A stretch of DNA of 64,000 nt from Paenibacillus terricola. GTDB taxonomy: Bacteria; Bacillota; Bacilli; Paenibacillales; Paenibacillaceae. The translations under genes were made by a program, and so were the position numbers. The DNA lies in NCBI RefSeq assembly GCF_014779765.1, contig NZ_JACXZA010000006.1, forward strand, positions 62,001-126,000, given 5' to 3'. Positions 6,320 through 64,000 of the stretch are shown piece by piece; position 1 is the stretch's first letter, and every line of letters begins with the position of its first letter. The notes under the pieces were generated by a model. The model saw only the letters and a program-made list of their open reading frames with translations. It was not told where the DNA came from and did no database searches.

Positions 6320-7665
6320 GTACCAGCTTTCCTTTGATTCATTTTTTCGAAAGTCCAAATAAACCAAGTGACAAGTATGATTCCTTTAAGCACACTGCTT
6401 AATGCAATGGATATCCAAACGCCGTTCAATCCATAAGAATTTGAAAGCACAATCGCCATAGGTATTCGCAGCGAAGTTAGAATAATACTGAAAATGGGCG
6501 GTATGTAGGTTTTTCCAATCCCATTGAAAGCCCCAACCGTCATCAATTCCACGCACATAAACAACTGCGAAGCACCGATAATTTGCAAATAGTCTACACC
6601 AAGACTTAGACTTGCTTCATCCGCCAGGAACAACGCAAAAATAGGCTCGGGAAACAACATGAAAAGGATAGAAACAAACATGCCAAATAATGAAGTGATA
6701 ACTAAGCCGATCCTATATCCGCTTTTAATTCTGTCATGCTTGTGTGCACCGAAATTTTGTCCGATAAAAGCTGCAACTGCCCCTTGAAGTCCACCGATAG
6801 TCATGTATGAAATGGATTCAATTTGAATGCCTACTCGTTGAACCGCAATTGCGTTTGGTCCCCATTGGACTACTATTTTAGCAATGATGATGGAAATGAC
6901 GGTAAAGGCCACACGTTGTACCGTTATTGGCATCCCTATTCGAAGAACTTCTTTCATGTGTTCAAAATGGAATATAAACGGCCTGGAGAATAAAGGCGAC
7001 TGCCTCGTATTCACTATAAATAAACACATAACAATTACATTTGCTATCAATGTAGATAACGCTGCCCCCGATACTCCAAAGCCGTTGAAATTCCCTACTC
7101 CAAAAATGAATAAGGGATCCAGAAATAAGTTAACGAGGAATCCTACGGTTTGTACTTGAAACGGTTTTCTGCTGTTTCCCATTGAAGTAAGAACCATGCT
7201 GAACAATGAATTCAACAGTGTAAAGAACGTTCCTATGATCGCAATGATAAGGTAATGGCTTGCCATCTGTTCAATTTCTATACTGCCTAACTCGAAATAT
7301 TCGATCAGGTATTGATGGGTTGCCAATATGATTAATATGAATATAGTACCCATGACTAACGACATGAGTATCCCATTATGTGTATGAACTCTTGCTTGGT
7401 CTTCCTTCCCAGCTCCTAAGCTATGCGAAACCTTAATGCCTGTTCCAATAGAAACTATCGTAAACAAGGCAATTGCTAAGTTCACGAAAAAGTTCGCGGT
7501 GCCGATCGCTGCAACTGGATTACTTCCCAACTTCCCGATCCAGAACATATTTACAAGACCATAAGTGGTCGAGATAAAATTCGTGGCGATTACAGGCAAA
7601 GTCAATCTCATGAGGGTTGATGTAATTGGGCCCTCCCGCAAGTCATGCGTTCCCTTCAAATCCAC
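6316..7665 (-). CDS. MATE family efflux transporter
   Basis: Cation-coupled exporter of the inner membrane, 449 residues with 12 predicted segments in two similar halves. The MATE hallmark lies near the start (LTLPVIATNFISTTYGLVNMFWIGKLG) and again in the second half (IGMPITVQRVAFTVISIIIAKIV). The GTG start at 7665 has AAGGA close by; a TTG two codons later has better spacing and is equally possible. It is downstream of an ArsR-type regulator, with an ATCAA-N6-TTGAT operator in the 131-bp gap, and overlaps gshF by ATGA. ArsK, a MATE protein exporting trivalent arsenicals, is a precedent for the inferred role. Confidence 0.88.
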   Translation of the reverse strand: MDLKGTHDLREGPITSTLMRLTLPVIATNFISTTYGLVNMFWIGKLGSNPVAAIGTANFFVNLAIALFTIVSIGTGIKVSHSLGAGKEDQARVHTHNGILMSLVMGTIFILIILATHQYLIEYFELGSIEIEQMASHYLIIAIIGTFFTLLNSLFSMVLTSMGNSRKPFQVQTVGFLVNLFLDPLFIFGVGNFNGFGVSGAALSTLIANVIVMCLFIVNTRQSPLFSRPFIFHFEHMKEVLRIGMPITVQRVAFTVISIIIAKIVVQWGPNAIAVQRVGIQIESISYMTIGGLQGAVAAFIGQNFGAHKHDRIKSGYRIGLVITSLFGMFVSILFMLFPEPIFALFLADEASLSLGVDYLQIIGASQLFMCVELMTVGAFNGIGKTYIPPIFSIILTSLRIPMAIVLSNSYGLNGVWISIALSSVLKGIILVTWFIWTFEKMNQRKAGT

Positions 7666-7761
7666 ACTTCCTTAAATCAGTTATCAAACCTCTTACAGAG
7701 GAGGAAAATACTCATTCATGAATCGTACAACTTATCATGCCCGGTCTTTCTTATGATTCTT

Positions 7762-7781
7762 AAATCAATTTATTTTGATTT
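7762..7781. promoter_or_regulatory. ArsR-type operator between arsR and MATE gene
   Basis: The palindrome AAATCAA-TTTATT-TTGATTT has seven-base arms and contains the ArsR half-site arrangement ATCAA-N6-TTGAT. It lies just past the arsR stop and about 100 bp upstream of the MATE start. The same arrangement occurs upstream of arsR. Confidence 0.7.
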
Positions 7782-7796
7782 ATAGGTCATAAAAAA

Positions 7797-8147
7797 TCAT
7801 TTGCAGCAATCCAATGAAGTCTCATCTTGACGGCGGAATATACAGCACAAATCGGATGAAAGCAGCCTGTTTACCTCAAGCTGATTCAATTCGTAATAGC
7901 TCCATGTCCCCTTCGTTTCGCGGTTAATGATACCAGCATCCAACAGTATTTTAAGGTGATACGAGAGTTTCGATTGCGGCATATCAACCAACTCGCCTAA
8001 TTCGCATACACAAGTGCTGCCCCTTTGAGTAAGTTCGTACATAATTTGAAGCCGTTTTTGATCCGCAAAGGCTTTAAACTTTTTTTCATACGTTGTGAAA
8101 TCTACAGATGCATCCTTGTCACTAAATATAGGAAACCCTTTTATCAT
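7797..8147 (-). CDS. arsR: ArsR/SmtB family metalloid-responsive repressor
   Basis: Winged-helix repressor of 116 residues. The recognition region reads MPQSKLSYHLKILLDAGII. The metal-site motif is TCVCEL, with Cys46 and Cys48 where classical ArsR carries CVC; the third classical cysteine is replaced by Gly51. The C-terminus adds two vicinal pairs, Cys101-Cys102 and Cys114-Cys115. Vicinal C-terminal cysteines are known in ArsR variants selective for methylarsenite, so an organoarsenical inducer is possible (inference). The ATG has GAGGAGA upstream. It is first in an operon with the MATE exporter and gshF, and has twin ATCAA-N6-TTGAT operators. Confidence 0.88.
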   Translation of the reverse strand: MIKGFPIFSDKDASVDFTTYEKKFKAFADQKRLQIMYELTQRGSTCVCELGELVDMPQSKLSYHLKILLDAGIINRETKGTWSYYELNQLEVNRLLSSDLCCIFRRQDETSLDCCK

Positions 8148-8217
8148 ATATTATCTCCTCTCCCATAATTTTTAAGTTGTACAGATCGAATTCAGCGTGC
8201 CATAAATCATTTTTTTG

Positions 8218-8268
8218 ATGTTAACATGGGATAACAGAAACATCAATTATTAATCAAGAAAAGTTGAT
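8218..8268 (-). promoter_or_regulatory. arsR promoter and ArsR-type operator
   Basis: On the minus strand a -35 TTGATG (8241-8246) and a -10 TAACAT (8218-8223) are 17 bp apart. An ATCAA-N6-TTGAT operator (8253-8268) abuts the -35 from upstream. The transcript start would fall about 60 bp before the arsR ATG. Confidence 0.65.
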
Positions 8269-8382
8269 GAATTTGATCCAGACTCGAAACACGTCCGGGG
8301 ATGCTTGTATCGCAAATAATTCGTTAATTAATTCGTTGCAAGCGGGTCATTACTACGTGTATCTGCACGTCACCAAAGGAAC

Positions 8383-8429
8383 GAAAAAAGAGGCTTCTCA
8401 CAAGTTCGCTGAACTCATGAGAAGCCTCT
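8383..8429 (-). terminator. Terminator of groESL
   Basis: On the minus strand AGAGGCTTCTCA pairs with TGAGAAGCCTCT over 12 bp, with an inner GTTC/GAAC stem, followed by six T. It lies about 90 bp past the groEL stop and resembles the terminator at 3753-3800. Confidence 0.75.
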
Positions 8430-8517
8430 AGTTTTCTCCCCGATGTTACCCTTTAGTTACCCTCAGGATACCCCCGGCACCTCAAACCCCTTATAAATCA
8501 AGGGTTTTCGGTGGTTA
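8430..8517. other. Possible recombination-site scar downstream of groEL
   Basis: On the minus strand this gap carries near-repeats GGGGGTATCC, GAGGGTAACT and AAGGGTAACA at short intervals, and a small inverted repeat, AAACCCTTG and AAGGGGTTT. Such G-rich near-repeats look like arm sites beside tyrosine-recombinase attachment sites. No integrase gene or second att copy is visible in the window, so this is a guess. The remaining 8269-8382 stretch holds no gene. Confidence 0.25.
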
Positions 8518-10197
<1,680 letters not shown>

Positions 10198-10234
10198 TTA
10201 TGTGTGTCTGCCTTGTATGTGACTCCTCGAGCGA

Positions 10235-10516
10235 TTAGCCCAGGATTGCGTGAATGTCGCTTTCCTTCATAATCAAATACTCTTTGCCTTCGTATTTGAC
10301 TTCCGTGCCCGCATATTTGGAGAACAGAACGCGATCGCCTACTTGAACTTCAAGCGCAATGCGTACGCCGTCCTTAAGCGTGCCGCTGCCTACAGCAACG
10401 ATTTGTCCTTCTTGCGGCTTTTCTTTGGCCGTATCTGGAAGCAGAATGCCGCTTGCCGTAGTCTCTTCTTTCGCGATCGGCAGTACCAATACGCGCTCAC
10501 CCAAAGGTTTGATCAT
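10235..10516 (-). CDS. groES: 10-kDa co-chaperonin GroES
   Basis: Lid of the GroEL chamber, 93 residues. It begins [13 protein letters not shown] and carries the mobile loop [19 protein letters not shown] that binds GroEL. The ATG has AAAGGAGG upstream. It is the first gene of groESL, behind a SigA promoter and a CIRCE operator. Confidence 0.99.
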
Positions 10517-10557
10517 GAAAAATAGCCTCCTTTAGAAAATGTTCCTTGTACTTTCTA

Positions 10558-10584
10558 TTAGCACTCGAACGACTCAAGTGCTAA
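10558..10584. promoter_or_regulatory. CIRCE operator (HrcA site)
   Basis: TTAGCACTC-N9-AAGTGCTAA differs from the consensus TTAGCACTC-N9-GAGTGCTAA at one position. It lies between the groES promoter and start codon, so HrcA repression with heat-shock relief is expected. Confidence 0.95.
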
Positions 10585-10595
10585 CAACCATTTTT

Positions 10596-10624
10596 ATAAT
10601 ACTCATTTTGGCGATACATTTCAA
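10596..10624 (-). promoter_or_regulatory. SigA promoter of groESL
   Basis: On the minus strand -35 TTGAAA (10619-10624) and -10 TATTAT (10596-10601) are 17 bp apart, directly upstream of the CIRCE element. Confidence 0.8.
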
Positions 10625-10661
10625 GTGCCCGGCCATCAATTTATCTGATTTTAACATATCG

Positions 10662-11807
10662 CTATTGGAGCTCATATTTGCCGCTTGACTGCAATATCGT
10701 GCGCACTTCAATGTCCATGTCTTCTCCGCCAGGGAGCCAGTCGTGCCCTGATACGTGCTTCTTCCAATAAGACAAATGGTACCGATACAAATTCAGCCTT
10801 GTCTGAAACACATCGGCATGCTGCTTCAGCCCTGACTTATAAGCTCGCTGAAGCTCCTTTGTCACAATTTTATTCGCCACGCTCTCCAGCTCCTGCTTGG
10901 AAAGCTTGCCTCCCATTTCAACCAAATGCGCCTTGATTGTTATCTTCAGCTTGAAACGAACATGGTCGCCTTGAGCGATTGCTTTCAATTGCTGCTTCAC
11001 ATCGTCTACAGAGATAGTCGCCTTATCTCCGTCTGACTTTATGGCTAACAGTTCATGCTTGAAATCAGGCTGCAACCATCGGATTCCTCGATAGTCGTTG
11101 TCGCTCATGTAACCAATAAAGCTTCGATTCGAGAATAAGAACACGCCGTCAAGCAAGTTGAGCTTCATCGGCTTGTCCATCTGTTTCCAATCCCCTGTCT
11201 CGGCAGTCAAGCTGGGCAGCAAGACGGTAATGGAGGGCTCATTCAGCTGCTGTACGTACATCTGCATATTCATAGACCGATATGCGCTGATTTGCTCGTG
11301 CAACAGATGAGGGGCGTACAATAGGCTAATGAGCGGCGAACGATTAAAAAGATTATGGGTCGTGAACAACTTCTCGATCTCATCGCGTGTACCGAACATC
11401 CACACCGTATACCTAGAAGCCCGTTGCCGGTTAAGTGCATCTAGCAGCTCATTGATCTGCAGCATGGCCCGCTCTTGAATGACGATCGATTTCAGCTGTT
11501 CGATGCTGACTTGATATTGAGAAGACTTAATCAGTGAGCGAATCGCCTCGAACACGGTATCCCCTTCGCCGCGCCCGATCCATATGACAGGAGATTTGTC
11601 CGGAGTCCCGCCTTCCGTCTTTGCTACTGCACTGAATCCGATCATCTCTCCGTAGAGAATGTACTTACCGTCCTTATAATCGACGCCAAGCGCTGTAACA
11701 TAACCGACATCCTGGAGATCGACTTCGTCCCAGCACCCTCCGATCACTAGCGCAACGGACAAGCCGAGCAATGCCTTTATTGCGTTTCTCAGCCATCCGA
11801 AGCTCAT
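10662..11807 (-). CDS. Ger(x)C family spore germination lipoprotein
   Basis: C subunit of a nutrient germinant receptor in the spore inner membrane, 381 residues. The N-terminus has a lipoprotein signal ending in the lipobox VIGGCWDEVDLQD, so Cys25 would be the lipidated residue. The rest shows the GerAC pattern: VTALGVDYKDGKYILYGEMIGF, then a C-terminal domain with repeated lysine-rich helices. The ATG overlaps the stop of the gerA-like gene by ATGA. It is last in a permease/A/C operon. Confidence 0.93.
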   Translation of the reverse strand: MSFGWLRNAIKALLGLSVALVIGGCWDEVDLQDVGYVTALGVDYKDGKYILYGEMIGFSAVAKTEGGTPDKSPVIWIGRGEGDTVFEAIRSLIKSSQYQVSIEQLKSIVIQERAMLQINELLDALNRQRASRYTVWMFGTRDEIEKLFTTHNLFNRSPLISLLYAPHLLHEQISAYRSMNMQMYVQQLNEPSITVLLPSLTAETGDWKQMDKPMKLNLLDGVFLFSNRSFIGYMSDNDYRGIRWLQPDFKHELLAIKSDGDKATISVDDVKQQLKAIAQGDHVRFKLKITIKAHLVEMGGKLSKQELESVANKIVTKELQRAYKSGLKQHADVFQTRLNLYRYHLSYWKKHVSGHDWLPGGEDMDIEVRTILQSSGKYELQ

Positions 11808-13234
11808 CGGCTCTCGCTCCCTCTGCTTCTATGTCTCAGCAAATCCCAAGGCACATGAATGATCGCTCTCAGCAGCTTCCGCCATTCAATCGGCGCGATC
11901 GGCGCCATGAATGGATGCCCGAACGATTCCAGCGAGCACATGTACACAAGAACGACGAACACGCTGATGAAGAAACCGAATATACCAAGGATGGAGGACA
12001 AGATCAGAATAAACAGTCGGATGACGCTAACCGACCCGTTCAAGGACTGATTGACTAGTGTAAAAGTAGCAACGGCCGTTACCGCTGCCGCGACTAACAT
12101 CGTCGGGGAAGTAAGGCCTGCCCGAATCGCGGCATCGCCGACGATTAAGCCCCCGACGACGGACACGGTCTGACCGACGGGTCTCGGCAGTCGGACGCCT
12201 GCTTCTCGAAACAGCTCGAACATCGCGAGCATCATGAACATCTCCATAGGGGCGGAGATCGGAAGCCCTGCACGCGATACCGTTACGGTAGCCAACAGAT
12301 TGAAAGGGATCTGGTCGGTATTAAAGGCGGATAAAGCGATCCAAAAGCCTGGCACGCACAGCGCCAGCACAAGACCGAATAAACGAAGCAGCCGCTCCAT
12401 CGTCACATAATGGTACGGCAAATGCGCATCCTCCGGCGACTTGATAAGCAGCGATAACGATGCCGGTGCGATAATAGCAGACGGCGAGCCATCCACCAAT
12501 ACCGCAACTCGCTTGCTTACAAGCGCCTGAACCACATAATCCGGTCGTCCATTGTAGTCCAGCAGCGGAAATAACGACAGCGGACGATCGGAGACCAGCT
12601 CTTCCAGCTGCGTTGAACTGTACATCGCATCAACGTCGATCGCTTTCAATCGACTGCGCATCTCGTCCACGATCGAGCTTTTGACTTTGCCATCGAGATA
12701 TAGCAACGCTACCTCAGTCTTCGTCATCTTCCCGAGCGAATAGAATTCGCAACGCAAATCAGCCGTTCTCAGCCGCTTGCGCACCAGCGCCAGATTCGTC
12801 TCCAGCTTCTCGACGAAGCCGTCTCGCGGTCCCTTCAGCGACACTTCCATTGTCGACTCTTCCGGCTGGCGGCCAGGAGGATCGCTAATTTCCGCTTTGT
12901 ACCAGCGATCGCCGCAATAGGCGATCAGCGCACCCGATGTAAGCTCCATAAAGATGGACTCCGTATCGACATCCTCCCGGATTTGCGAGAAGACCGGCGG
13001 CATACAAGAGTTCGAGCTGAAATCCCACGACTCCATCTCATTCATAATGCCGATATGAAGCTCGCGGCTATCTATCATGCCAATGCAATAGTACATGTGG
13101 ACTTGCACCTTGCCGTCATTAACATTGATGTTGCGCATGGTCACGTCGCCGCAGCGCTCCACCATCTCATCCCAATCCTGCAGGCTCGGATTGCGGCGAG
13201 CTGAACTCGGCTTTTTATTATCCGTGTCGATCAC
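11804..13234 (-). CDS. GerA family spore germination protein (A subunit)
   Basis: A subunit of the germinant receptor, 476 residues. An N-terminal cytosolic domain (about 1-290) with KTEVALLYLDGKV and a DRPLSLFPLLDYNGRPD segment typical of the family is followed by several membrane segments including SAPMEMFMMLAMFELFREAG. The GTG at 13234 has AAGGAGGTG six bases upstream and is preferred to in-frame starts further upstream with no ribosome site. It overlaps the permease gene by 17 bp, as is common in ger operons. Confidence 0.93.
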   Translation of the reverse strand: MIDTDNKKPSSARRNPSLQDWDEMVERCGDVTMRNINVNDGKVQVHMYYCIGMIDSRELHIGIMNEMESWDFSSNSCMPPVFSQIREDVDTESIFMELTSGALIAYCGDRWYKAEISDPPGRQPEESTMEVSLKGPRDGFVEKLETNLALVRKRLRTADLRCEFYSLGKMTKTEVALLYLDGKVKSSIVDEMRSRLKAIDVDAMYSSTQLEELVSDRPLSLFPLLDYNGRPDYVVQALVSKRVAVLVDGSPSAIIAPASLSLLIKSPEDAHLPYHYVTMERLLRLFGLVLALCVPGFWIALSAFNTDQIPFNLLATVTVSRAGLPISAPMEMFMMLAMFELFREAGVRLPRPVGQTVSVVGGLIVGDAAIRAGLTSPTMLVAAAVTAVATFTLVNQSLNGSVSVIRLFILILSSILGIFGFFISVFVVLVYMCSLESFGHPFMAPIAPIEWRKLLRAIIHVPWDLLRHRSRGSESR

Positions 13235-57443: not shown

Positions 57444-58385
57444 TTATTTCGCTTGCTGATGCTCTTTCAACAAATTGTGAATTCGAGTCTGCTCCTCTGG
57501 GGTCACGATATCGTACCAGATCTTGTTGATGATTTTGCCGGTCCCCTTGATTTCAACGGTATCGACATGATCGATCACCGAGCGATAATCGGTGGCAAAC
57601 GTCTTCATTTCGTCAAAGGTGATGTTCGTCTTCACGCCATTGCCGACCTCATCCAGAATGGATTGAATCTTCGTCACGTTCTGAATGTTGACGGCGTGAT
57701 GCATGACGGATTGAAGAATGTCACGCTGCCTCGTATTGCGGCCGAAATCGCCTCGCGGATCATCGTAACGCATACGGGAATAGGATAATGCTAGCGTGCC
57801 ATCCAGCTCCAGAGGTCCTTGCGCAAAGCTATGTCCCTCATAATCGAAGGCAAAAGGATTGTTTACCTCTACGCCGCCGATCAAGTCTATGAACGTCTTA
57901 AAGTTCTCCATATTGACTTTCACATAGTAGTCGATTCGATAGTCGAGGAAGTTCTCGATCGTTTGAAGCGACATATCGACGCCGCCGAATGCGTAAGCGT
58001 GATTGATTTTGTCCGTTGTACCGTGCCCGATGATTTCCGTTCGTGTATCCCGCGGGATGTTGAACATGAGAACGGAGTTTTTACTCGGATTGACCGACAT
58101 CACGACGATCGTATCCGAACGCCCCGGGTCGTTCGTCCGCTGATCGACCCCAAGCATAAGGACGGTGAATGCATCCTTGTCTTTAATGGAGACGGGCTTC
58201 GTCGGCAGCGGAGTTGCTTCAGGGTCCTTGCTGACGTAGACGGGACGGGTAGGTTCTTCGTAGATTTTGGTTGCCGTATGCTCAATCTGAACAGCGACAT
58301 AGATGACATAGCTGACAACGCCAAGGATAATAAGTGTTATGGATGAAGCCGTCCATATAATGATCTTTTTCCATTTGCGTGAAAT
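57444..58385 (-). CDS. LytR-CpsA-Psr (LCP) family wall-polymer ligase, ATT start
   Basis: Attaches teichoic-acid or polysaccharide chains to peptidoglycan, outside the membrane. With the start at 58385 the protein is 313 residues: a basic N-terminus, one membrane segment (IIIWTASSITLIILGVVSYV) and the LCP domain with LMLGVDQRTNDPGRSDTIVV and NIPRDTRTEI, and the arginines that bind the lipid pyrophosphate. ATG, GTG and TTG are absent in frame before residue 77, which is inside the LCP domain. The codon at 58385-58383 is ATT, with AGGAGGG eight bases upstream and an in-frame stop 24 bp above. So ATT is the likely start. It lies 30 bp behind the lasso exporter gene. Confidence 0.82.
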   Translation of the reverse strand: MSRKWKKIIIWTASSITLIILGVVSYVIYVAVQIEHTATKIYEEPTRPVYVSKDPEATPLPTKPVSIKDKDAFTVLMLGVDQRTNDPGRSDTIVVMSVNPSKNSVLMFNIPRDTRTEIIGHGTTDKINHAYAFGGVDMSLQTIENFLDYRIDYYVKVNMENFKTFIDLIGGVEVNNPFAFDYEGHSFAQGPLELDGTLALSYSRMRYDDPRGDFGRNTRQRDILQSVMHHAVNIQNVTKIQSILDEVGNGVKTNITFDEMKTFATDYRSVIDHVDTVEIKGTGKIINKIWYDIVTPEEQTRIHNLLKEHQQAK

Positions 58386-60227: not shown

Positions 60228-60704
60228 TCATCCCCTTACGTGTTCCAACTGTTTCTTCCGATGTCCGTTGTTGGCGAACTTGCCGACGACGGTGAATTTG
60301 CTCATTTCCTCATAACCCGTCAAATAATGCGGACCGCTTCGCAGCCACGCATGAGCAATCATTCGTCCTGTTGCATCCTTAGCCGTACCCATGTATAGGG
60401 TACAAGATATACCGCGGCGTTCCAGCATTTTCATAGCTGCTATTGCCTTTACCATACACATGCTCTCCCACCAAGTATGACGGCTCATGCGCTGAATCGC
60501 TGTGGAAACACCAGCCAGAATCCGATCCTGCGATGGATCATGAGCGAACGAGGACTCTTCCGTACGAACGCCTAATGTCGGAGCAACCTTCGCGAATGGC
60601 AGCTGTTTCAGTACGCGCGCCCATCCAAGGTACAAGAAAGCTTCGGCGTACAGCCATTTGCGTTCCATCGGCATGGCTATTATTTTCTTAACAACTCTCC
60701 ACAC
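60228..60704 (-). CDS. Lasso peptide leader peptidase (B2)
   Basis: Transglutaminase-like cysteine protease that cuts off the precursor leader, 158 residues. The catalytic cysteine is Cys83 in WWESMCMVKAIAAMKML, and His118 lies in RMIAHAWLRSG. The start is GTG at 60704, with AAGGAG upstream. It acts together with the separate RRE protein encoded just before it. Confidence 0.88.
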   Translation of the reverse strand: MWRVVKKIIAMPMERKWLYAEAFLYLGWARVLKQLPFAKVAPTLGVRTEESSFAHDPSQDRILAGVSTAIQRMSRHTWWESMCMVKAIAAMKMLERRGISCTLYMGTAKDATGRMIAHAWLRSGPHYLTGYEEMSKFTVVGKFANNGHRKKQLEHVRG

Positions 60705-60734
60705 GATGTGTTGTCTCCTTTGCTTAAGAGTCCG

Positions 60735-61031
60735 TTAAATCGCTGCCGCTGCTTGGATAACGACGAGGTTCTCGCTGGCTAGATTATCGAGGAAAGAAAT
60801 AACCTGCGCTGTGCAATCCTCTGTCGACACGTCGTACTCTTCCGTTAACTTTGTGACAAGCTCGCTTACGCTAACAGGTGCAGCGATCGATTCCCAGATG
60901 CGTCCACCAATTTCACCAAGATTGTAGTACTTACCGGATTCGATGCTCATCATGACCGTTTCGCCACCCATCTGGCTAGCGAGATTCCCCTTCGCCTGGG
61001 ATACAATATCAGTCAATGAGATAGACTTCAT
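60735..61031 (-). CDS. Lasso peptide RRE protein (B1, PqqD-like)
   Basis: RiPP recognition element that binds the leader and hands the precursor to peptidase and cyclase, 98 residues. The PqqD fold is visible in VMMSIESGKYYNLGEIGGRI and EEYDVSTEDCTAQVISFLDN. The ATG overlaps the kinase stop by ATGA. Confidence 0.88.
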   Translation of the reverse strand: MKSISLTDIVSQAKGNLASQMGGETVMMSIESGKYYNLGEIGGRIWESIAAPVSVSELVTKLTEEYDVSTEDCTAQVISFLDNLASENLVVIQAAAAI

Positions 61032-61954
61032 AAAGTTACACCCTCCCTAATTTCATTTGTTATACATTCGACAAGCTCATGCGCAGTCATTCCAACCATC
61101 GGCCTTCTTAGTTTATACACGGGCACCTTCTCAGCCAGCTGAGCACTTAATGCAAAATGCCATTGTTTCATTTGCAGAATAGACACAAGAAAATTCCGAT
61201 AGGTATGCGTTAGCAAGAGCGGAAAGCGATCCAAACCAGTAACGGTCTTCAACACGACCAGGCCTTCACCCGAAATTGACAATTCAAAGATACCGCCAAG
61301 CGGCACTGGCACAGTCTCGAATTGCTCCGCAACGGGCACAGCGAATTTGACTCGTTCATTATCCTGATAGAGCTCATTGAAGTCGTGATCCTTCATCTGA
61401 AGTTGACTGACGCTTTCCTCCCACAGTTTCTGCTGCGGATAGGATGGGATCACAGTAGGCCGTCCTGAAACATCATCCATCGTTACAGCGATGACATCAT
61501 CAGTAAGCATCTTATAGCCTTGTTGGAGGAAGGCTGCAGCCAATGTCGACTTGCCCGCTCCCGATTCACCTACGATTGCATAAGCTTGCCCATCAATGAC
61601 AACAGCACTGCCATGCAAAGGTAATATCTTTCTCTGCAGCAGGATAACCGCCATACAAGTTCCAAGTATATACAGCCGAAGCGCAGCTTCATTACAATTA
61701 GGAAACGGAGAAGCGGTAATCGTTCTCGCGCTGACACAGAAGATTGCGGCATCATCAAACTTAAAATAGAAGTTCGGCGCCTGATAGCGACAGCCATTAT
61801 TCGGGAGCTGCGCGACTTCAGGGATCGACGTCAAGTCCTGCAGAATGATTTGCACATCTGCTTCCTTATCGTTATCGAAATCTGATAATTCAAACAATTC
61901 AGGAAGCATAATCTCGCTTCGAATCGTTAAACCGAATGCCTTGTATGCATCCAC
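61028..61954 (-). CDS. Lasso peptide kinase (HPr kinase-like)
   Basis: 308 residues with an HPr-kinase-like nucleotide domain. Walker A is GESGAGKST at residues 129-137, and LTDDVIAV is the acidic Walker B (Asp152/153). Related kinases in paeninodin-type clusters phosphorylate the C-terminal serine of the precursor, and the precursor here ends in Ser60. The start is GTG at 61954, with GGGAGG upstream. It lies between precursor and RRE genes. Confidence 0.87.
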   Translation of the reverse strand: MDAYKAFGLTIRSEIMLPELFELSDFDNDKEADVQIILQDLTSIPEVAQLPNNGCRYQAPNFYFKFDDAAIFCVSARTITASPFPNCNEAALRLYILGTCMAVILLQRKILPLHGSAVVIDGQAYAIVGESGAGKSTLAAAFLQQGYKMLTDDVIAVTMDDVSGRPTVIPSYPQQKLWEESVSQLQMKDHDFNELYQDNERVKFAVPVAEQFETVPVPLGGIFELSISGEGLVVLKTVTGLDRFPLLLTHTYRNFLVSILQMKQWHFALSAQLAEKVPVYKLRRPMVGMTAHELVECITNEIREGVTL

Positions 61955-61978
61955 TACTGTTCCAGCCTCCCTGGGATT

Positions 61979-62011
61979 GTACCCTAATAAAAGAAACCTT
62001 TATTAGGGTAC
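61979..62011. other. Perfect 13-bp hairpin between precursor and kinase genes
   Basis: GTACCCTAATAAA (61979-61991) is matched by TTTATTAGGGTAC (61999-62011) around a 7-base loop. There is no T run, so it may protect or process the precursor mRNA rather than end it, raising precursor over enzyme levels. Confidence 0.6.
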
Positions 62012-62044
62012 AAATTAAGTACGGGATCATGCAGTAAGTAATGA

Positions 62045-62227
62045 TTACGAGCGTGGGTCTGGACCGATTACCCATGTACCGCCTGGTTGAGGACCGACTG
62101 GATCCTTCGTGTTCTCGAAGTGGTGGTCCGTGAAGTACAGGTCAATGTTAGGACCGCCGCTGCCTGCCATCGTTTCCTTAACATCAAGCACTTCAACAAC
62201 TGGAGTTGCCCAAGTTTGTTTTGTCAT
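62045..62227 (-). CDS. Lasso peptide precursor with unusually long core
   Basis: 60 residues. The leader runs M1-M20 (MTKQTWATPVVEVLDVKETM), with Trp6/Pro9 in the place of the usual YxxP motif and Thr19 at position -2, the lasso leader rule. The core would start at Ala21: AGSGGPNID puts Asp29 at core position 9, right for an Ala1-Asp9 ring as in paeninodin. The tail carries on 31 residues to the C-terminal Ser60, a 40-residue core against the usual 15-26. The ATG has AAAGGAGGTG upstream. A second processing step is possible. Confidence 0.85.
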   Translation of the reverse strand: MTKQTWATPVVEVLDVKETMAGSGGPNIDLYFTDHHFENTKDPVGPQPGGTWVIGPDPRS

Positions 62228-62257: not shown

Positions 62258-64000
62258 TTATGCTATTTGATTAGATAAGAATCGATGAATGACAATACAG
62301 CGAAGGAGCAGTCTCATATCCGGATCGAAGGCCAGTTCCGGCCCTAGTTTTCCTCTTACTTTATCCAGCGATTTGAGCATTTGTTGTTGGTTCAATAAGC
62401 CCGCAACTCGGCTATCACGACTTATCGCTTCAAGCTCTTCTACGAATCGGTCCCAGTCCGGCAGAATTCGATGAACCCAATCCGAGGCTTGAATGCCTCT
62501 GGTACGCTGATTCAATCGAATCTGATCGGGAAGCCGATCCTTCATCGCTCTTCGAATTAATGCACGATCCATCCCTTGCTGCACATATTGCTCGAGCGGT
62601 ACAGACAAGCAGAATTGAACAACTCGCGGATCGATCGTTGGATCACGCTCCAAGACCCCGAGCCGAAGCGATAGCTTCGTCGCAACCGTGCCCTGCATAC
62701 TACTGACCGACGGCACATTGAAGTATCGCATCCGTTCATCCCTGATGTCCTGTGAGAAACCATTGATTCCAACATCAGATGACTTTAACCGCTCGAATAC
62801 TTTAGTCGATCTAGCGAAGTCCGGATGAATCAGCTGCGGATCTTCTGAAGCCGTTCCTCTTGATTGGATTTTCTCCAATATCGGCATAGCCAGCCTACTA
62901 ACGATTGGAACAAGCTGTTTCCTACCCATTCCCATAATTCTTCCGAAGTGCTTAAGCTCTTGGTTTAATCTCATGAAGCGGAACTGTTTCAATAGGTAGG
63001 CATAATAATGAACAGCGGATCCCCAGGAGATCGTATGATTACCTCTACCGCCGGTAAGAAGAATGCCAACATCTTGTCGAGCCGCTTCTTCACATATACC
63101 TTTTGCCCAGAACGAGTTTTCACCGAATTTATAAGGCATCTCCATCAGACTGAGCCAATCGTCGATCTCGGTGTATGAACTCTTCTCCGGAAAGTTTAGA
63201 TAATGATCAGAGATATTGCTTCCGACATGACGAACGGTCTCATGTATGTAAGGACGTTCATCCGCCAGTCGGCCTCTTGAGGTCCAGTCGACAAAATCAT
63301 CCGGCGGAATATAGCTGAAGGTATGTAACGTTCGATTAACACCATTCAACTCTCGAGCTGCTAAGCTAACAACGGATCCAGAATCAAGCCCTCCACTCAA
63401 ATGGGCTCCAATCTGCCGATTCGTGCGAAGCTTCGATTTGACCGCCTGTGAGAATACATCGAGAAAAGCTTCTTCATATTCCCCGTCTGAACGCAGCTTT
63501 AGAGGCTCCGGAAGCACAAAACTTGCGTAACGAGAAACCGTTAGATTACCTGCGACGAATGTAAATCGGTGAGCGGGCGGAAGCTGATCTATATCTTCAT
63601 AGACGGTTTCGCCACAATCCACGGAATCCAAAACAATGGGAATCGCCAGATATTGCGCCAGCCAAGATTCACGAATTGTCCCTCGAACTCCCTGCAGTCG
63701 AAGCAACGGCCGAATCATAGTCGAGAAGGCAAATTGATTCGAAGTTCGCGTATAGTACAATGTACGATTGCCAAAATGATCACGGGCCCCAAACATCGTC
63801 TGCGTACGCTGATCCCATATGACAAACGCATAATCGCCAATCATATATCGCGGAGCATTCGCTCCCCACTTCTGATAAGAGAGTAGGATCAGCTCGCAAT
63901 CGGATATGAAGATGCGACGAGCAGCCGATACTCCCAGCCGTTCGCACAGCTCCTCCCGATTATCCAGAATGACATCCGCTGTTATCACAAGCCCACTACT
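62258..64000 (-). CDS. Lasso peptide cyclase, asparagine synthetase-like (5' end off window)
   Basis: ATP-dependent macrolactam synthetase that closes the ring. The visible 580 codons run off the window edge in frame, so the N-terminal glutaminase-like residues are cut. The PP-loop for ATP is GAHLSGGLDSGSVVSLAA, and the C-terminal region has MDRALIRRAMKDRLPDQIRL. It precedes the precursor gene by 30 bp. Order C-A-K-B1-B2-D is consistent with one transcript. Confidence 0.9.
   Translation of the reverse strand, partial: SSGLVITADVILDNREELCERLGVSAARRIFISDCELILLSYQKWGANAPRYMIGDYAFVIWDQRTQTMFGARDHFGNRTLYYTRTSNQFAFSTMIRPLLRLQGVRGTIRESWLAQYLAIPIVLDSVDCGETVYEDIDQLPPAHRFTFVAGNLTVSRYASFVLPEPLKLRSDGEYEEAFLDVFSQAVKSKLRTNRQIGAHLSGGLDSGSVVSLAARELNGVNRTLHTFSYIPPDDFVDWTSRGRLADERPYIHETVRHVGSNISDHYLNFPEKSSYTEIDDWLSLMEMPYKFGENSFWAKGICEEAARQDVGILLTGGRGNHTISWGSAVHYYAYLLKQFRFMRLNQELKHFGRIMGMGRKQLVPIVSRLAMPILEKIQSRGTASEDPQLIHPDFARSTKVFERLKSSDVGINGFSQDIRDERMRYFNVPSVSSMQGTVATKLSLRLGVLERDPTIDPRVVQFCLSVPLEQYVQQGMDRALIRRAMKDRLPDQIRLNQRTRGIQASDWVHRILPDWDRFVEELEAISRDSRVAGLLNQQQMLKSLDKVRGKLGPELAFDPDMRLLLRCIVIHRFLSNQIA

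What the first reader, a model, noticed from the sequence alone, without database searches (positions are those of the whole stretch)
62045..62227. Lasso peptide precursor with a 40-residue predicted core
The leader, Thr at -2, Ala1 and Asp9 all fit the paeninodin-type rule, and the C-terminal serine fits the adjacent kinase. But the core from Ala21 to Ser60 is 40 residues, far beyond the usual 15-26. Either the threaded tail is extraordinarily long or a second cut trims it. The tail is rich in Pro, Gly and acidic residues and holds His35-His36.
Basis: partly seen in the sequence, partly recalled or inferred. Interest (0 to 1): 0.7.

Follow-up and report, generated by a model that had tools for sequence, protein, structure and literature searches.

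The report
Long-tailed lasso peptide precursor gene
A bacterium of the Paenibacillus family carries an intact gene set for a knotted (lasso) peptide whose encoded product is 40 amino acids long, longer than any characterised lasso peptide I could find reported, and its relatives show that such long tails are a recurring, selected feature rather than a reading error.

Summary
Window 62045-62227 (-) encodes a 60-aa precursor of NCBIfam NF033524 (paeninodin family; 46.7 bits, cut-off 27) in an intact C-A-K-B1-B2-D cluster. The core is Ala21-Ser60, 40 residues, and fits the Ala1-Asp9 ring rule.

It is not a freak. Twenty distinct precursors from eight genera have cores of 34-41 residues (nine of exactly 40), all with Asp9 and a C-terminal Ser; most relatives have 21-26. 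The tail beyond residue 15 is under purifying selection as strong as the ring (pooled pN/pS 0.26 against 0.35). All long cores lie in one of two cyclase clades, where length changed several times. The longest characterised lasso in the review I could read is pandonodin, 33 aa.

Best reading: a class II lasso with a 9-residue ring and a 31-residue loop plus tail. The tail is kept at least until the kinase phosphorylates the C-terminal Ser; the nucleotidyltransferase upstream of the cyclase probably caps it. The cluster closes a capsule/exopolysaccharide locus. Sequence alone cannot settle whether the final product is trimmed.

Side findings: the genome's only B1 and B2 lie here although a second precursor locus exists; a hairpin follows the precursor gene in most relatives.

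The parts
62045..62227 (-). lasso precursor A, 60 aa: leader 1-20, core 21-60 (40 aa), ring Ala21-Asp29, C-terminal Ser60
   Evidence: NF033524 46.7 bits over cut-off 27; alignments with relatives
62258..64000 (-). lasso macrolactam cyclase C (Asn synthase + GATase domains); continues 264 bases past the window end, 668 aa in all from a TTG
   Evidence: PF00733, PF13537; best NCBIfam match NF033535 lass_lactam_cya, 328 bits, below its cut-off of 525; open frame joined with L036
61977..62013 (-). 17-bp hairpin between A and K
   Evidence: fold z -3.81; a post-A hairpin is common in relatives
61028..61954 (-). HPrK-like kinase K, 308 aa, predicted to phosphorylate Ser60
   Evidence: HprK-related matches; His, Lys and Asp-Asp aligned with HPrK 1jb1
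60735..61031 (-). B1, leader-binding RRE
   Evidence: NF033536 126 bits; 54.5% identical to PbaB1 of PDB 9x90
60228..60704 (-). B2, leader peptidase
   Evidence: NF033537 98 bits, PF13471
58416..60218 (-). D, ABC exporter without a C39 peptidase domain
   Evidence: PF00664, PF00005
57444..58385 (-). LytR-CpsA-Psr family protein directly after D; apparent ATT start
   Evidence: PF03816 157 bits; syntenic in L099 and L114; start region

Best explanation
The gene encodes a genuine paeninodin-family (split-B, kinase-bearing) lasso precursor. B1 binds the WATPVV leader motif and presents the Met20/Ala21 bond to B2. C closes Ala1 onto Asp9 around the tail. K phosphorylates the C-terminal Ser60 on the full-length precursor, and the NTP_transf_5 protein encoded upstream of C probably adds a nucleotide or sugar to that phosphate. 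D exports the product. The 40-residue core is the true core: a 9-residue ring followed by a 31-residue loop and tail, retained at least until phosphorylation and most likely in the product. Shown here: the genes, their intactness, the family membership, the recurrence of long tails and the selection on them. Inferred: threading, phosphorylation, capping, export, and absence of trimming.
For: Family models for A, B1 and B2 and domain matches for C, K and D. Gene order C-A-K-B1-B2-D as in paeninodin-type firmicute clusters (PMC5067487). Kinase His, Lys, Asp and Asp residues present (motif from PMC9266682). PF14907 nucleotidyltransferase beside C, the counterpart of PsmN of pseudomycoidin. The nearest relative in the genus, L099, has a 41-aa core in the same gene order. 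Twenty distinct cores of 34-41 aa in eight genera, all with Asp9 and a C-terminal Ser; 91 of 101 pattern hits end in Ser and the other ten lack a family leader. Tail pN/pS 0.26 against 0.35 for residues 1-15, pooled over five pairs of relatives. PadeK acts on the precursor, not on the threaded peptide (PMC9266682), so the encoded C-terminus must be present at that stage. Tail extension is tolerated by some systems: astexin-1 and pandonodin accept C-terminal fusions (PMC13352647).
Against: No product has been seen. The closest studied cluster, pba of P. alginolyticus, gave no assignable masses from its native host (PMC13381572). No characterised lasso in the review read exceeds 33 aa. Endogenous carboxypeptidases are known to shorten lasso tails. 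The window tail itself aligns poorly with those of relatives (34-47% identity over the precursor); the pN/pS counts are small and come from relatives, not from close strains of this species.
Confidence: 0.62

Rival explanations
1. The 40-residue core is trimmed after or during maturation: the distal part acts as a follower or kinase handle and is removed, leaving a conventional lasso of about 15-25 residues.
For: Tail trimming by host carboxypeptidases is known for lasso peptides (PMC13352647). Several relatives carry Gly-Gly at core 14-15, a motif that C39 peptidases use elsewhere (the C39 link is general knowledge).
Against: Gly-Gly at 14-15 is absent from the window core, L099 and L102, and D has no C39 domain. 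No extra peptidase shows among the cluster genes or the neighbouring genes checked. Tails are conserved between species pairs and the C-terminal Ser is constant.
Confidence: 0.25
2. The cluster makes a linear phosphorylated peptide rather than a lasso, like the linear polyphosphorylated peptides (LPP) of Bacillota.
For: LPP clusters share an HprK-like kinase, RRE, nucleotidyltransferase and MsbA-like exporter, can lie near capsule genes, and the one studied has a 45-aa core (PMC13381572).
Against: The leader motif is WxxP, not YxxP; a macrolactam cyclase and B2 are present and intact; the genome has no SipW-like peptidase match over the family cut-off; the phosphorylated Ser of the LPP is core residue 3, whereas the constant Ser here is C-terminal.
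Confidence: 0.05
3. The cluster is decaying and the long tail is a read-on into formerly untranslated sequence after loss of a stop codon.
For: Length varies from 31 to 41 between syntenic clusters of the genus.
Against: All cluster genes are open. Long tails end in Ser each time, recur in distant genera and show purifying selection. Apparent in-frame TAG hits in other genomes are simply the stops of 25-aa cores.
Confidence: 0.04

Closest known systems
Paeninodin (Paenibacillus dendritiformis C454)
   Same: Gene order C-A-K-B1-B2-D, leader type, Thr at -2, C-terminal Ser, HPrK-like kinase
   Different: Paeninodin is of the short-core type (23 aa, from memory); short AGPG-type cores fall in the other cyclase clade; the window core is 40 aa and its cluster sits in a polysaccharide locus
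pba lasso cluster of Paenibacillus alginolyticus DSM5050 (PbaB1, PDB 9x90)
   Same: B1 54.5% identical; paeninodin-like; surrounded by polysaccharide genes (PMC13381572)
   Different: Its core length and product are not given in the text read; it lies beside an LPP cluster, of which no sign was found in this genome
Pseudomycoidin (Bacillus pseudomycoides DSM 12442)
   Same: Kinase plus nucleotidyltransferase acting on the C-terminal Ser (PMC9266682)
   Different: The nucleotidyltransferase gene sits upstream of C here; the two cores were not compared here
Pandonodin
   Same: Exceptionally long tail, the record in the review read (33 aa in all, tail 18)
   Different: Proteobacterial, class IV with a disulfide in the tail; the window core is 7 residues longer and has no Cys

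Membership tests
Lasso peptide, paeninodin subfamily | Precursor matches NF033524 over its cut-off | tested here: met
   46.7 against 27 bits
Lasso peptide, paeninodin subfamily | Cognate C, B1, B2 present and open | tested here: met
   C scores below the cut-off of the cyclase model NF033535 but has PF00733 and PF13537
Lasso peptide, paeninodin subfamily | Thr at -2 and acidic acceptor at core 7-9 | tested here: met
   Thr19; Asp29 = core 9
Lasso peptide, paeninodin subfamily | HPrK-like kinase with His-Lys-Asp-Asp and a C-terminal Ser on the precursor | tested here: met
   Ser60
Lasso peptide, paeninodin subfamily | Threaded macrolactam in the product | not testable with these tools
   needs mass spectrometry and NMR
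Lasso peptide, paeninodin subfamily | Core length within the range of characterised lasso peptides (descriptive, not a formal criterion) | tested here: not met
   40 aa against a reported maximum of 33 (PMC13352647)
LPP (linear polyphosphorylated peptide) | YxxP leader and SipW-like peptidase LppS | tested here: not met
   WxxP leader; no TIGR02228 match over cut-off in the genome

The most novel reading that the evidence does not exclude
The 40-residue product is the longest lasso peptide known, and its Pro/Gly-rich tail is a tether: the phosphorylated C-terminal Ser is linked, through the nucleotidyltransferase and the adjacent LytR-CpsA-Psr protein, to the capsule or wall polymer made by the same locus, so that the lasso is displayed on the cell surface instead of being released.
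Probability: 0.1. Interest if true: 0.8.

Novelty: new variant of a known kind. Interest (0 to 1): 0.45.

Why it matters
If the full core is matured, it pushes lasso length past the published record and gives a natural set of long-tailed scaffolds. The syntenic clusters with 31, 40 and 41 residues are a ready-made series for asking how the cyclase threads and tolerates long tails. The link to a C-terminal phosphate and a polysaccharide locus bears on the open question of what paeninodin-type peptides do.

Tried and rejected
Precursor against the PDB: only chance matches. Kinase-based scan of named genomes: none confirmed. Alignment A1 was too divergent for a pattern scan; A2 worked and named two hosts of 40-aa cores, P. 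sambharensis and P. tarimensis. Capsule association: at least one of four polysaccharide or wall genes within 10 kb in 9 of 18 long loci (34 aa or more) against 7 of 37 short ones (26 or less), Fisher p 0.027; LytR-CpsA-Psr in 7 of 21 (30 aa or more) against 1 of 37, p 0.002. On the cyclase tree only three independent pairs exist and neither trend is supported, so I do not rely on it. Rfam has no family for the hairpin. Apparent in-frame TAG codons in relatives were ordinary stops. Pseudomycoidin's original paper is not held.

Full report
What is there. The minus-strand ORF 62045-62227 is a 60-residue protein, MTKQTWATPVVEVLDVKETM/AGSGGPNIDLYFTDHHFENTKDPVGPQPGGTWVIGPDPRS. It has a good ribosome-binding site and matches the NCBIfam paeninodin-family precursor model at 46.7 bits against a cut-off of 27. 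On the same strand follow a kinase of the HPrK type, a B1 leader-binding protein, a B2 peptidase and an ABC exporter; the macrolactam cyclase lies upstream and runs 264 bases past the window end. This order, C-A-K-B1-B2-D, is that of paeninodin-type firmicute clusters (PMC5067487). All frames are open. The nearest solved B1 is PbaB1 of the P. alginolyticus pba lasso cluster, PDB 9x90, 54.5% identical. The kinase keeps the His, Lys and Asp-Asp residues that align with HPrK.

Surroundings. Upstream of C, on the same strand, lie an NTP_transf_5 nucleotidyltransferase and then a mannose-1-phosphate guanylyltransferase-like protein, a sugar epimerase/dehydratase, UDP-glucose dehydrogenase, a Wzx-type flippase, glycosyltransferases, a TupA-like ATP-grasp protein, a GDP-mannose dehydratase and a bacterial sugar transferase. 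Downstream of D is a LytR-CpsA-Psr protein. The lasso genes therefore close a capsule or exopolysaccharide locus. Paeninodin-like clusters inside capsule loci have been reported (PMC13381572), and in pseudomycoidin the kinase and nucleotidyltransferase genes account for phosphate and hexose on the C-terminal Ser (PMC9266682).

Is the length real, and is it rare? NF033524 hits occur in 241 of 396 genomes of the family. Among the precursors read from fetched loci most cores are 21-26 residues (37 pattern hits of 22). Twenty distinct precursors have 34-41, nine of them 40 (the one from L023/L110, listed as 38, is 40 when cut after Thr-Met as). They come from the window's genus, six other genera of the family and one genus of another family in the order. 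Two hosts are named: P. sambharensis and P. tarimensis. In all of them residue 9 is Asp and the last residue is Ser. The sampling favours loci that resemble alignment A1, so these numbers do not estimate how common long cores are.

Is the tail functional? In five pairs of related precursors with cores of 31-40 residues the pooled pN/pS is 0.26 for residues 16 to the end and 0.35 for residues 1-15. The tail is thus constrained about as much as the ring. The counts are small, and the window's own tail has no close relative: against L099 the ratios are 0.60 (tail) and 0.48 (residues 1-15), with silent sites near saturation. A tree of 61 cyclases splits with full support into a clade of short-core types (one core of 31 aside) and a clade that holds all 19 long ones. 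The long label needs 7 changes on the best tree and at least 3 on well-supported branches. The window cyclase groups with those of 40-, 41- and 31-residue cores. Between the window and L099 the exporter (85%), LytR-CpsA-Psr protein (91%), B1 (78%) and B2 (80%) are much more alike than the cyclase (59%), kinase (52%) and nucleotidyltransferase (64%). The enzymes expected to handle the core and its C-terminus have diverged with it; those that see the leader have not. This fits the tail being a substrate, but is an inference.

How it most likely works. Leader recognition and cleavage, ring closure, phosphorylation of Ser60, a further cap on the phosphate, and export follow from characterised relatives and are not shown here. 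PadeK acts on the precursor and not on the threaded product (PMC9266682). If this kinase does the same, the encoded C-terminus is intact at that stage, which argues against an early second cut. A later trim remains possible. The record in the review I could read is 33 residues, for pandonodin (PMC13352647), so an untrimmed product would exceed it. I found no paper in the held library that describes a long-core class, but most subscription papers are missing from it.

A second result concerns the whole genome. It is scored 100% complete and holds one B1 and one B2, both in this cluster. Yet a second precursor locus lies on contig 13, with its own cyclase, kinase and exporter and a 28-residue core. 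G003 and G004, in the same genus, have three and two precursors and one B1/B2 pair each. G342 has at least two precursor loci and one pair. The simplest reading is that one B1/B2 pair serves several cyclase modules in trans.

Verdict. Observation confirmed. The precursor is an ordinary family member in every respect but length; the length is real, recurrent and, in relatives, selected. A link between long cores and capsule genes is a trend that cannot be separated from relatedness, so the tether idea stays a hypothesis.

Noticed in passing
L037 (G000:C13) about 6949-11965, and window 60228-61031: The genome has a single B1 and a single B2, both in the window cluster, but a second precursor locus (core GGPNGVVPDKNGKGANNRHDEGPGPTIS) with its own cyclase, kinase and exporter; B1/B2 probably act in trans. 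G003, G004 and G342 show the same pattern.
   Followed up: partly
window 61977-62013, and the 100 bases after the precursor gene in relatives: A hairpin follows the precursor gene in most clusters, often with arms like GCCCTTATAC / GTATAAGGGC; 56 of 90 distinct downstream stretches reach a stem score of 11 against 3 of 90 mononucleotide-shuffled ones; no Rfam match. It may set the amount of precursor mRNA relative to the enzymes.
   Followed up: partly
L032 (G001:C40), about 1338-1620: A paeninodin-family leader is followed by a 57-residue Gly/Pro/Ser-rich, collagen-like core with no acidic residue at 7-9, which could not form the usual ring.
   Followed up: no
L100, L101, L103, L104, L107, L110, L113, L136, L139: Cores that begin with Leu, Ile, His, Glu or Tyr after the Thr-Met cleavage site, instead of Ala, Gly or Ser.
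   Followed up: no
window 58383-58385 (-): The LytR-CpsA-Psr gene has no in-frame ATG, GTG or TTG before its membrane helix; an ATT codon at the corresponding place in the window, L099 and L114 looks like the start.
   Followed up: partly
L100 and L101 (G003, G004): Loci with 40-residue Leu1 cores show only cyclase, precursor and exporter, with no kinase, B1 or B2 detected beside them, yet the precursor still ends in Ser.
   Followed up: no
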